Assembly (NCBI GenBank): GCA_025937835.1
Contig: JAICQO010000028.1
Coordinates: 1 to 64,000 of the forward strand
Direction of reading: 5' to 3'
Length of the DNA: 64,000 bases
Source: Polyangiaceae bacterium
Lineage (GTDB): Bacteria > Myxococcota_A > Polyangia > Polyangiales > Polyangiaceae
Shown one piece after another: positions 7,834 to 30,430 of the stretch; the first letter of the stretch is position 1; each line of letters starts with the position of its first letter. The notes under the pieces were generated by a model. That model ran no database searches, was not told where the DNA came from, and worked only from the letters and a program-made list of their open reading frames with translations. A program made the translations under genes and the position numbers.

Positions 7834-10800
7834 TCAGGTGGTCTGGATCTGGATCCCGAGTTGGCGCCGGACCTCGAAGTAGGAGTCGCTCGTGAAGTAC
7901 AGGAGCAGCTCCTTCATCTTGTCGACCGCCGACAGATCGCCGGGCAGCTGAGGCTCGGCGGCCAGGATCTTCTTCGCGATCTCGAGATCCCCGCAGACGA
8001 TCAGGCCGGCACGGCAGGCGGTGAGCTCGACTGCCTGGTTCCAGCGTTTGATGTTGGCCTTGGCGCCTTCTTCGATGAAGCGCTTCACCACCACGCGCAG
8101 ACCCTCGAGCTGCACTGGTTGCTGCTGGATGTGCCTGGCTAGCTCGCGCGCGGTCGCGGCGATCTGCGCGGCCATGTCCTGCGGCATCGGCGTGTTCGGC
8201 GCTGCGATCGCGATACCCGCGAACATCATCACCGTCAGCTCGGCCTGGGTCGGGAACAGCGTGCGGATGTAGTGTTCGCCTCGGTAGGACGCGAGGTGCT
8301 TGGCAAGCATGAACGCCAGATCCTGCGGCTGGAAGCCCGTGAGCACAGTCTGCCCCGCGAGTGACGCCGGCGGCACCACCGGCACCGTGACGATGGCGCC
8401 GGGCAGATCGCTCCGGATGTACAGCTCCGGCGCCTGGATGCCGAGCACCTGAGCCGCCCAACCGAAGGTCTTGGCGAACGTCACGGTGGAGGTCGCCGGA
8501 TCGTGCCGCGAGCGCTTGTCGAGCGCGGGCAGCTTGCCCTGAGACTTCAGCTGCTCGACCTTCGCCTGCAGCGCCGCGGGCGCGATCATCTCGAAGATCT
8601 TCGAGACGTACAGGTTCTCGTCCGGGTGGAAGACGTGCTTCACCCAGGTGTCGTTGGACAGACGCCCGCGAACCTGGAGCATGCCCTGCGGGCGGTAGTC
8701 TTCGAAGAAGCGGTTCTCCTCCGGATCGGCCTTGCGCAGGAACGCGAGCGCCGCCGCCAGGCACCAGGCCTCGTCGTACGACGACTTCTGGAGGTACAGG
8801 CGGTAGAGCGCGCGGTACGCATCGACGTTCAGCGCGTCTTGCTCGAGCAGCACGCGCTGCTCGGCGATGGCGTCGTCCCAGCGCTCGCTCACCTCGTAGA
8901 GCTCGGCCAGGATCTGATGAATCACCACGTCCCCCGGCTTGGTGGTGGACGCCATCCGGAATGACTCGATCGCCGACTCCGCGTTCTGCAAGCGGTCGCG
9001 GTAGACGAGGCCGAGCTGATGCCACAGCGTGTGCTCGAGGTCGGCGTTGCCCTTGCCCGCGATGCGGTGAAGCATCTTGCGATACGAGCGTTCGAGCGCC
9101 TTCCAGTTCTTCTGCTGGGTCAGCACCTTGTTGATGCGCTCGAAGGCCTCGAGGTAACCCGGGTGTAGATCGAGCGCCTCGTTGAACAGCTCGACTGCGC
9201 GATCCAGATCCTGGATCTTGTCGCGGTAGATCTGCGCCTGCGTGAACACGTAGCGAGCACGGGTCTCGGGCTTCTCCTCGAAGCTCGCGATGGCCTCGAG
9301 CGTGTCGACCATCTTCTGCCAGCTCGCCGCGCTCTGGTACAGCGTGAGCAGCTTGTGCAAGAGGACGTGGTCGCGCGGCTGAAGCTCCTGCGCCTCTTCC
9401 AGCGCGTCGATCGCCTTTTGCGGGTTCTTCTCGCGCTCCGACCAGATTTCGCCGATCTCGTTCAAGATCCGGTAGCGCTCGTCGCCGTCGACGACGCCGT
9501 CGAGGATCTGGCGCTTGTACGCCGCGACCTGCTTCCAGTCCTTGTTCTTCGAGTAGATGTCGACCAACGCCTCGAGCGTCGGGCGGTGCTCCGGGTTCAG
9601 GCCCAGCGCCTTCTCGAAGTTGTTGATGGCCTGGCGTGCCTGGCCCTGCTCGCGCTTGATGCAGCCGAGCCGGTAGTACACGTCGGTGCGCGCCTCGACG
9701 TCCTGCTCGGACAGCGCCGTCAGCACCTTCTGGTAGTTGGTGAGCGCCGTCGCCCACTCCTTGAGCTCGAAGGCCACGTCCGCGATGCCGCGGATACTGT
9801 CTTGATCGGTGAGGTCGAGCTGGTTGGCGGTCTGGTACGACTTGAGGGCCTTCTCGAAGTTGCCGAGCGCGGCGTGGACGCGGCCGAGCAGCTTGTTCAG
9901 CGTGTGCTGCTCACCGCGTTCACGGCCCTTGCTCTTCTTGACGAGCATCTCCGCGAGCGGCTCCGCTTCCTTCCACTTCTCGGCGCGGACGTACTCCTCG
10001 ACTAGCGGCAGCGCCGCTTCCTCGCAGTCCTCGTCGCACTGGATCGCGAGCTCGTAGGCCTGGATCGCCAGATCGTGCTCGCCGAGCGTCTCGTCGCGGA
10101 GCTTTCCGAGCTCGACGAGTAGCCGGGCGCGAGCGCGGGGCGCCTGGGTGTTGAGCTGTTCTTGCTCGAGGTAGCGCGCAGCGCGATCCCAGTCGGCCTC
10201 GTTGATGGCGATGGCGCGCAACGCGCTCAACGTCGGCAAGTGCGCCGGGTCGAGATCCAGCGCCATTTCCAGGCGTTCCTGGGCCTGGCCGCGGTCGCCG
10301 AGCTTCTCTTCCAGAGCGCGGCCGATGCGGTAATACATCTCCACGCGCTGCTTGCTGTCCGTCGTCAGGTCGGCGACGCGGGTCATCGCGTCGATCGCCT
10401 GCGCGGCGTCCCCCTGCTTTTCGTACAGGCGGCTCAGGGCGTCGAGCGCGGGCACGTTCAGGTCGTCGAGGTCGACGATGTTCCGATACGCGTCGATCGC
10501 GCGATCGACGTCGCCGACCTCTTCCGCGTAGACCTGCGCGATCTGGAAGTAGAGCTCCACCTTGGTGGCGCTGGTCGCGGTCTCGGCGATGTGGCGCTCG
10601 TAGGTGTTGATCAGATCGAGCCACTGCTTGAGACGGCGGTAGCAGCGCTCGAGGGCCGCGTAGGCGCGCTCCTCGGCCGGTGAGATCTCGAGCGCCTGCT
10701 CGAGCCGCTGCGCCGCCAGATCGAACTTGAGGAAATGCTCTTCCTGGATCAACGCCAGCTTGATCAGGACCTCCACGCGCTCGCGCTCGGTCTCGACCAC

Positions 10801-28693: not shown

Positions 28694-30430
28694 TTACCTC
28701 CCACAGGCAGATTCGACGACCTGCCGATAGAATCCGAGTTCATCACGCCAGTACTCGCCGTCGAACGGCCAGAGGATGTGCTCCGAGTCGGGCTTGACCA
28801 CGCCGAAGATCTTCGACTCTGCCTTGGACACACGATCGGTCGTGAGCTTCTGGTCGATGATGTTGCGTTGGGCTGCGGTGATATCGATCAAGATCTTCTC
28901 ACCATTGCGCATGTGTTCGTTCAGCTCTTCCACGTTGCGGCGATAACGAGACGCCGCGAGCTCGCCCGCCTGACGGATCGCCAGGTCACGCGCGAGCTTC
29001 AATGAATCTCCGACTTGCTGACCCACGCCCGAGCCCTGGAAGCTGGACGGCGCCTTCTTGAAGCGGCCCTCCTCCTCCTCGAGCAGCTTCACGTAGTCGA
29101 TGTTGCGGAGCAGCTGGCGATCGCTGAGCGCCGACTCGACGATCGGGCGGATCCGCGGGTCGAGGTTGGCGCTTCCGTCGCGCACCTGCAGCAGGAACTT
29201 GAAGAAGGCCTCTTCCTGGTTCTCGCCCGAGTACTTCTTCAGCACCTTCTCGAGCTCGTCCTTGATCGGCGTGTTCTTCTTGTTGAAGCGCGCGACCGTG
29301 ATCACCGCGGCGTCGTAGTTGCAGTTGAAGAAGTAGACGACCGCCTTGAGGATGTCGGCTTCCGGATAGAACGCCTTCGGGAAGTATGGCGACTGGATGG
29401 TGTGGATGTTGCCGAGCGCCTCGGGGTAGCGGCCGGCCATGTAGAACGCCCACGACTCCTCGAACAGCGCGTCGAGCCAGTACTCGCTGGCCTGATCCAC
29501 CGAGTTCCAGTACTTCACCGCCGCCGACAGCTTCTTCTCGTCGATGGTGGGAGCGTTGGTCTCGGGGTCGAGCTTGACGGACGCGGAGTAGAACGTGCGC
29601 GCGATCGACAGGTTCGCGAGGTCGCGCATGCGATCCTCGTCCTCGACGCCCTCGACGCCCTCGTCGAGCGCCTCGAGAATGCGCTGGAAGGCGTTCACCG
29701 CCGGCACCGACTTGCGCATCTGCACGTAGCTGATGCCCGAGAAGAACTGCGCCTTGACGTAGTACTCGCTGCGCCGATCCACCATCTGGAACAGGCGGAT
29801 GCTCTCTTCGTACTGGCGGTTCCGGTACTTGTAGCGGCCCAGCATGTAGTTGAGCTGCCAGTAGAGGTCGCGCTGCTGCTCGTTGTCGAAGCGCGCTACC
29901 TGCTCGTCGGAGTACTTACCGACGCGCTCGATGATGTCGGCCGGCTCCGGCAGCTGCGTCGCGAGCTTGGCGAGCCAGAGCAGCGTCTCCTTGAACTTCA
30001 GGTGTGCCGGGTTGTCGGCGATCACGCTGAAGATCGCGTAGCTTGCTTGATAGAAGCGCAGCCGGTAGAGCGCGATCGCCAGGTAGTACTCGGCGAGCTG
30101 CTTGTTACCCGGATCGTCGCCGGTCTCGCCGGACACGACGCTGTGCAGCGCCTGGGCGGCCTCGTTCCAGCGCTCCTTGTCGAACAGCTGCTTGGCCGCA
30201 GCAGCGGCCTCGCTCATCTGCCCGGCGGTGACGGGCTCGGCCTTCGCCGGCGCGCCCTCGTCCAGATCGATATCCACGCCCTTCTTACCGGAGGGGGCCT
30301 TCCCGCCCTTCTTCGGCGGGGGCTCGGCATCGAGGTCGATCACCTCCTGTGCGCTCGCGACTCCCGTGAGAGTCGTCTGAGCGGCGAACGCAGCCAGAAA
30401 GCAGACGGCGACAAGGCGCTTTCGAAACAT
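28694..30430 (-). CDS. gltC: GltC/NfsC-like periplasmic protein
   Basis: A 578-residue secreted protein: signal peptide (cleavage after GVASA), an acidic spacer (VIDLDAEPPPKK, VDIDLDEGAP), then TPR-like helices (AEYYLAIALYRLRFYQASYA, YMLGRYKYRNRQYEES) and a C-terminal helical region ending WPFDGEYWRDELGFYRQ. GltC and its paralogue NfsC are periplasmic parts of the gliding/spore-coat complexes that contact the outer-membrane barrels. Here it heads the gltCDE operon, whereas in M. xanthus gltC sits with gltA, gltB and gltK. ATG 30430 is preceded by GAGG; upstream in-frame starts add Arg-rich non-conserved sequence. The assignment rests on architecture and context. Confidence 0.75.
   Translation of the reverse strand: MFRKRLVAVCFLAAFAAQTTLTGVASAQEVIDLDAEPPPKKGGKAPSGKKGVDIDLDEGAPAKAEPVTAGQMSEAAAAAKQLFDKERWNEAAQALHSVVSGETGDDPGNKQLAEYYLAIALYRLRFYQASYAIFSVIADNPAHLKFKETLLWLAKLATQLPEPADIIERVGKYSDEQVARFDNEQQRDLYWQLNYMLGRYKYRNRQYEESIRLFQMVDRRSEYYVKAQFFSGISYVQMRKSVPAVNAFQRILEALDEGVEGVEDEDRMRDLANLSIARTFYSASVKLDPETNAPTIDEKKLSAAVKYWNSVDQASEYWLDALFEESWAFYMAGRYPEALGNIHTIQSPYFPKAFYPEADILKAVVYFFNCNYDAAVITVARFNKKNTPIKDELEKVLKKYSGENQEEAFFKFLLQVRDGSANLDPRIRPIVESALSDRQLLRNIDYVKLLEEEEGRFKKAPSSFQGSGVGQQVGDSLKLARDLAIRQAGELAASRYRRNVEELNEHMRNGEKILIDITAAQRNIIDQKLTTDRVSKAESKIFGVVKPDSEHILWPFDGEYWRDELGFYRQVVESACGR

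What the first reader, a model, noticed from the sequence alone, without database searches (positions are those of the whole stretch)
7834..30430. Gliding-type Glt/Nfs locus with a rearranged gene order: gltC-D-E-(F)-G ... gltI
Architecture and order of six or seven minus-strand genes match parts of the Myxococcus xanthus Glt machinery: secreted TPR proteins of 578 and 1,272 residues, a TPR lipoprotein, a small secreted protein, an FHA-TM-TonB-like protein and a giant cytoplasmic TPR protein. Unlike M. xanthus as I recall it, gltC heads the gltDE operon, gltH and gltJ are missing from their places, and an unassigned TPR lipoprotein precedes gltI. Motor genes aglRQS are absent here. This may be an ancestral or reduced machine, used for gliding or for spore-coat/exopolysaccharide transport.
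Basis: partly seen in the sequence, partly recalled or inferred. Interest (0 to 1): 0.8.

Follow-up and report, generated by a model that had tools for sequence, protein, structure and literature searches.

The report
Conserved gliding-machine (Glt) gene cluster
This stretch carries the structural genes of the Glt machine that lets myxobacteria glide; its gene order, thought to be rearranged, is the order most of the phylum keeps, and it includes one conserved lipoprotein gene missing from the published machine.

Summary
The genes are real. Profile searches place GltC, GltE, GltF (CglF) and GltG, all on the minus strand, in the Glt families, though all below NCBIfam's curated cut-offs. GltD and giant GltI are assigned by synteny, size and architecture. 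It is neither rearranged nor reduced. The order gltC-D-E-F-G, then a TPR lipoprotein, then gltI recurs across Polyangiales and several other Myxococcota classes. In M. xanthus, by the published maps, gltC has moved next to gltKBA. A GltJ homologue lies on contig C182 and Agl-type motors on C174. The GltC tree shows vertical descent in the glt-type clade, apart from nfs-like loci. Best reading: the complete Glt force transducer of a Polyangiaceae-like bacterium, most likely for gliding. The new points are modest. The 'unassigned' TPR lipoprotein is a conserved locus member that the published M. xanthus gene list lacks, and Polyangiales carry two back-to-back Agl-type motors.

The parts
28694..30430 (-). 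gltC: secreted TPR protein, 578 aa from ATG 30430 (ORF open to 30580)
   Evidence: NCBIfam NF033756 gliding_GltC 260.6 bits, E 3e-77 (cut-off 450); only strong copy in the genome, next best 54 bits
24869..28687 (-). gltD: secreted TPR protein, 1272 aa
   Evidence: Signal peptide, TPR hits; conserved between gltC and gltE across Myxococcota; size near M. xanthus GltD, 1191 aa (PMC3169522)
23238..24869 (-). gltE: TPR lipoprotein, 543 aa, lipobox LVAC
   Evidence: NF033758 gliding_GltE 89.2 bits (cut-off 225)
22835..23104 (-). gltF (cglF): small secreted protein, 89 aa, the same length as M. xanthus GltF
   Evidence: NF033764 gliding_CglF 26.5 bits, E 5e-6, model positions 10-88 of 88 (cut-off 90); conserved at this place
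20721..22772 (-). gltG: FHA domain, TM segment, AgmX/PglI-type TonB-like C-terminal domain, 683 aa
   Evidence: NF033760 gliding_GltG 325.4 bits (cut-off 650); NF033768 tail 84.5 bits over cut-off; PF00498 FHA 52.5 bits
19391..20290 (-). TPR lipoprotein, 299 aa, lipobox FAAGC; sits where M. xanthus has gltH
   Evidence: Found between gltG and gltI in 20 or more loci of about 10 families, with a conserved motif after the lipid cysteine; AlphaFold model is a TPR superhelix, pLDDT 92
7834..19194 (-). gltI: giant cytoplasmic TPR protein, about 3,786 aa (ORF open to 19242)
   Evidence: TPR models along its length; the giant TPR gene follows the lipoprotein in most loci
37189..38133 (+). gltB-type outer-membrane beta-barrel protein, 314 aa
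   Evidence: TIGR04565 OMP_myx_plus 85.5 bits, over cut-off 60; ftsY-gltB-gltA linkage conserved
38148..39020 (+). gltA-type outer-membrane beta-barrel protein, 290 aa
   Evidence: TIGR04565 48.6 bits (cut-off 60); tandem with gltB in the families sampled
35788..37044 (+). ftsY: neighbour of gltBA, not a Glt part, but the linkage is conserved
   Evidence: tblastn neighbourhood comparison
31149..31721 (+). Cys-rich lipoprotein, 190 aa, divergent from gltC; candidate accessory gene
   Evidence: Conserved next to gltC in families f1-f4 at 26-54% identity; no family match

Best explanation
The window holds the Glt structural genes of a Polyangiaceae-like bacterium, inherited vertically: gltC-D-E-F-G, a TPR lipoprotein and gltI on one strand, gltB-gltA divergent 7 kb away. 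Inferred mechanism, by homology to M. xanthus: a proton-driven Agl motor in the inner membrane (candidate on contig C174) acts on GltG and GltJ, whose TonB-like tails cross the periplasm. GltC, D, E, F and the TPR lipoprotein pass force to GltA/GltB in the outer membrane and so to surface adhesins, while GltI serves as a cytoplasmic scaffold. The output is most likely gliding. Shown: gene content, order, conservation, family homology, tree. Inferred: assembly, force path, gliding.
For: NCBIfam Glt models match GltC, E, F and G. TIGR04565 barrels lie in the same window. The C-D-E-F-G order is conserved in 19 of the 22 genomes examined and in 13 named Polyangiales contigs long enough to show it. 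The GltC tree follows organism grouping, with the window inside its own family and order (98/91, 100/100) and glt-type loci apart from nfs-like ones. GltJ on C182 matches the solved zinc-ribbon and GYF domains of M. xanthus AgmX/GltJ, 7zok and 7z3c. One-ExbB-plus-two-ExbD motors, the AglRQS layout, are present. The AglR-GltG interaction is known in M. xanthus (PMC3169522).
Against: All scores to the NCBIfam Glt models are below the curated equivalog cut-offs. No M. xanthus genome was available for a direct tree. GltK and GltH were not identified. The motor is not linked to the locus, and its assignment rests on layout and domain positions. No gliding data exist for this organism.
Confidence: 0.72

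Rival explanations
1. An Nfs-like surface transporter: the locus moves a spore-coat or other polysaccharide instead of driving gliding, or does both jobs.
For: The Nfs paralogue moves the spore coat polymer in M. xanthus using the same motor (PMC3858216), and nfsA-H also runs C-D-E-F-G. The genome has no clear separate nfs-like locus: other GltC hits score 54 and 52 bits.
Against: In the GltC tree the window lies with loci that carry gltI and a long FHA-GltG, apart from the contiguous A-B-C-D-E-F-G loci. M. xanthus Nfs lacks GltI and GltJ homologues (PMC3858216), whereas this genome has both.
Confidence: 0.17
2. An older Glt machine with some cargo-moving role other than gliding, as the first reader's 'ancestral or reduced machine' suggests.
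For: Luciano et al. report core-complex genes in non-gliding bacteria (PMC3169522). GltH and GltK are not found here.
Against: The Group A genes that mark the gliding machine (gltA, B, F, I, J) all have homologues here.
Confidence: 0.09
3. An unrelated cluster of TPR proteins that only resembles Glt.
For: TPR proteins are common and several hits are generic TPR models.
Against: GltC, GltG and CglF match Glt-specific models, the order is conserved across classes, and C71 and C174 score far lower.
Confidence: 0.01

Closest known systems
Myxococcus xanthus Glt machinery: G1 gltD-E-F-G-H-I-J, G2 gltK-B-A-C, motor M1 aglRQS (PMC3169522)
   Same: Homologues of GltA, B, C, D, E, F, G, I and J; matching domain layouts; one-ExbB-plus-two-ExbD motors at a separate locus.
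   Different: gltC heads gltD here; gltBA lie divergent beside ftsY; a TPR lipoprotein sits where gltH sits; gltJ is on another contig; gltH and gltK not found; two divergent Agl-type motors.
M. xanthus nfsA-H spore-coat transporter (PMC3858216)
   Same: The same C-D-E-F-G run in one cluster.
   Different: nfsAB stand directly before nfsC and there is no gltI; here gltBA are divergent and gltI is present; the window's GltC lies outside the nfs-like clade.
Core complex gltC-D-E-G plus aglRQS of Gammaproteobacteria, Geobacter and Fibrobacter (PMC3169522)
   Same: GltC, D, E and G together.
   Different: There the motor is in the cluster and gltA, B, F, I and J are absent.

Membership tests
Glt gliding machinery | Matches to Glt-specific protein family models | tested here: met
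   GltC, GltE, GltG and CglF models hit with E 5e-6 or better, but every score is below the curated equivalog cut-off, so homologue and not NCBI-grade equivalog
Glt gliding machinery | Outer-membrane barrels GltA and GltB | tested here: met
   TIGR04565, 85.5 bits (over cut-off) and 48.6 bits (below), tandem at 37.2-39.0 kb
Glt gliding machinery | Giant cytoplasmic TPR protein GltI downstream of gltG | tested here: met
   About 3,786 aa, no signal peptide, conserved at this place; M. xanthus GltI sequence not available for direct comparison
Glt gliding machinery | GltJ with zinc ribbon, GYF and TonB-like tail | tested here: met
   C182 protein of 785 aa: NF033761 79.8 bits in three stretches (cut-off 450) and PDB 7zok, 7z3c
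Glt gliding machinery | AglRQS motor: one ExbB-type and two ExbD-type proteins | tested here: inconclusive
   Three such sets (C10 and two on C174); the C174 minus set fits best by ExbD-domain offsets, but no M. xanthus AglR was available for the tree
Glt gliding machinery | GltH and GltK (CglE and CglC) | tested here: inconclusive
   gltH is not at its place (a TPR lipoprotein is there); no model or reference was at hand to search the whole genome
Glt gliding machinery | Mutants lose gliding | not testable with these tools
   Needs deletion strains and motility assays
Nfs sporulation machinery | nfsA-nfsB directly before nfsC in one cluster, no gltI | tested here: not met
   gltBA are divergent and 7 kb away, gltI present
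Nfs sporulation machinery | Groups with nfs-like loci in a GltC tree | tested here: not met
   Falls in the glt-type clade; the nfs-like set was defined here by gene order, without M. xanthus NfsC

The most novel reading that the evidence does not exclude
The TPR lipoprotein between gltG and gltI is a general component of the Glt machine, conserved since before the Myxococcota classes split and overlooked because the published M. xanthus locus has gltH in its place. It may act as an outer-membrane pilotin-like or force-transmitting part.
Probability: 0.45. Interest if true: 0.5.

Novelty: new member of a known kind. Interest (0 to 1): 0.37.

Why it matters
The experimental work on this gliding machine that I found uses M. 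xanthus. The survey suggests its split gene layout (gltC with gltKBA, away from gltD) is a local departure and that most of the phylum keeps one larger block. The block gives a practical marker for finding complete Glt machines in uncultured Myxococcota. It also names one testable extra part, the TPR lipoprotein, and shows that Polyangiales carry two Agl-type motors beside a single glt locus, so which motor drives which transducer becomes a clear question.

Tried and rejected
(1) 'Rearranged order' rejected. (2) 'Motor missing' rejected: one-plus-two sets on C10 and C174. I first took C10 as AglRQS. Domain offsets argue for C174-minus: ExbD domains begin at residues 13 and 40 there, 33 and 13 on C10, against 15 and 28 for M. 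xanthus AglQ and AglS (Luciano Table 1). The ExbB tree puts C174 in its own clade. (4) Looking for M. xanthus-type genomes through the class of G002 and the family of G108: the class held one genome, and family f33 has none over the GltC cut-off, so no direct M. xanthus comparison. (5) A first HMM run timed out; the repeat worked. (6) Fold search of the TPR lipoprotein finds generic TPR proteins, the pilotin PilF (2ho1) and MamA among them, so the fold does not say what it does. (7) Literature searches for AglQ D28N and for a gltBA-ftsY link found nothing useful. (8) GltE and lipoprotein assignments by TPR score alone are unreliable; position and motif were used.

Full report
WHAT IS THERE. 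The window is bases 1-64000 of contig C132 (69,022 bases) of a 6.92-Mb, 227-contig genome, 95.8% complete. Related contigs at 66-87% GltG identity are named as Polyangiaceae, Sorangium or Myxococcales MAGs, so the organism is most likely a Polyangiales member. On the minus strand from 30.4 down to 7.8 kb lie seven genes: GltC (578 aa from the ATG at 30430), GltD (1272 aa), GltE (543 aa), GltF/CglF (89 aa), GltG (683 aa), a TPR lipoprotein (299 aa) and a giant TPR protein (about 3,786 aa). Spacing is tight from gltC to gltG (6 bases C-D, overlap D-E, about 130 E-F, 62 F-G) and wider after gltG (430 bases to the lipoprotein gene, about 200 on to gltI), as the coordinates show.

FAMILY ASSIGNMENT. 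NCBIfam gives GltC 260.6 bits, GltG 325.4 bits with the AgmX/PglI tail at 84.5 bits, GltE 89.2 bits and CglF 26.5 bits. All four Glt models are matched well below their curated cut-offs (450, 650, 225, 90), so these are clear homologues but not NCBI-grade equivalogs. Only one genome of 286 across the phylum passes the GltC cut-off, so the cut-off is narrow. GltD has no model hit; it is assigned by position, signal peptide, TPR content and a profile that follows it across classes. GltI is assigned by position, size and TPR content.

A search for the outer-membrane barrel family TIGR04565 found two tandem genes in this same window on the plus strand at 37.2-39.0 kb (85.5 and 48.6 bits). In relatives of families f1, f2, f3 and f5 the pair lies 5-9 kb from gltC and on the opposite strand. 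The block runs gltI, lipoprotein, G, F, E, D, C, then divergently lipoprotein, YraN-like, HAMP, HEAT, ftsY, gltB, gltA. It is conserved across the order, and the ftsY-gltB-gltA and YraN-gltC pieces also occur in other classes. Which barrel is A and which is B was named by order only.

IS THE ORDER UNUSUAL? No. Thirteen named Polyangiales contigs that reach far enough, and 19 of 22 genomes from about ten families, show C-D-E-F-G in this order (one contig, L045/L113, is probably in both sets). Published maps put M. xanthus gltC with gltK-B-A, away from gltD, while nfsA-H is one cluster and the Anaeromyxobacter G1 and G2 homologues are grouped (PMC3169522, PMC3858216). The simplest reading, an inference, is that the M. 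xanthus split is derived. No M. xanthus-type genome could be recognised among those searched.

TREE. A GltC tree of 39 loci (IQ-TREE) separates glt-type loci from contiguous A-B-C-D-E-F-G loci, and the glt-type part follows organism grouping: window with its nearest relatives (98/91), then the wider Polyangiaceae set (100/100), then the order (100/100). That is vertical descent with no sign of transfer. The deepest split has modest support (85/86), and the two other copies in this genome (C71, C174) have very long branches and are not reliably placed.

THE REST OF THE MACHINE. GltJ: a 785-aa protein on C182 matches the GltJ model in three stretches (79.8 bits, cut-off 450) and the solved AgmX/GltJ zinc-ribbon and GYF domains (7zok, 7z3c). 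Motor: three sets of one ExbB plus two ExbD, one on C10 and a back-to-back divergent pair on C174. In an ExbB tree the C174 pair belongs to a separate clade of two Polyangia-wide orthogroups, and the divergent layout recurs in six Polyangiales genomes of five families. By ExbD-domain position the C174 minus set resembles M. xanthus AglRQS most; this is inference. GltH and GltK were not identified.

THE TPR LIPOPROTEIN. It keeps a lipobox and a short motif after the cysteine (such as CSRDHIEAINLANEG or CNLERNKSIQLMNEG), and a Polyangiaceae profile finds it in families of other classes at E 1e-12 to 1e-27. AlphaFold gives a confident TPR superhelix (pLDDT 92) whose nearest solved folds are generic TPR proteins. 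The published M. xanthus list has gltH there, and Luciano et al. call MXAN_4864/65 in the same interval probably not real genes although transposon hits there were named agmV. I could not test whether M. xanthus keeps this gene.

FUNCTION. Inferred from M. xanthus: the Agl motor acts on GltG (two-hybrid evidence), and the periplasmic and outer-membrane Glt proteins carry the force to the surface. Gliding is the likeliest output because homologues of the gliding-linked genes gltA, B, F, I and J are all present. An Nfs-like polymer transport role is the main rival and needs deletion strains to settle.

VERDICT. A conserved, vertically inherited Glt locus in an uncharacterised myxobacterium: a new member of a known kind. 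Its modest novelty lies in the conserved TPR lipoprotein, the ftsY-gltBA linkage and the doubled Agl-type motor.

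Noticed in passing
L071 (own genome C174:3194-7645): Two ExbB plus two-ExbD motor sets stand back to back, divergently transcribed; the layout recurs in six Polyangiales genomes of five families, while one strong GltC locus was found in each.
   Followed up: partly
L069:16077-17567 (own genome C95): A solo GltG paralogue without the FHA domain, beside a histidine kinase and a Ser/Thr kinase; FHA-less or partial GltG copies also appear in other Polyangiaceae loci (L050, L052-L058).
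   Followed up: partly
L072:5004-18384 (own genome C174): A second, divergent GltC/D/G-like cluster next to an outer-membrane protein and a Wza-type polysaccharide export lipoprotein, suggesting a link to exopolysaccharide export.
   Followed up: partly
L073:3409-12723 (own genome C71): A third cluster: TIGR04565 barrel, GltC-, GltD- and GltE-like genes, no GltG nearby.
   Followed up: partly
window 31149-31721: A Cys-rich 190-aa lipoprotein with no family match, divergent from gltC and conserved there in four Polyangiales families.
   Followed up: partly
window 35788-39020: ftsY-gltB-gltA linkage is kept even in genomes of other classes where gltBA are far from gltC (L144, L145, L150).
   Followed up: yes
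L169 (G086), ExbD at 1703-2302: An ExbD-like protein of a one-plus-two motor has Asn where the usual membrane Asp is expected (VIPVMNLF), so it may not conduct protons itself.
   Followed up: no
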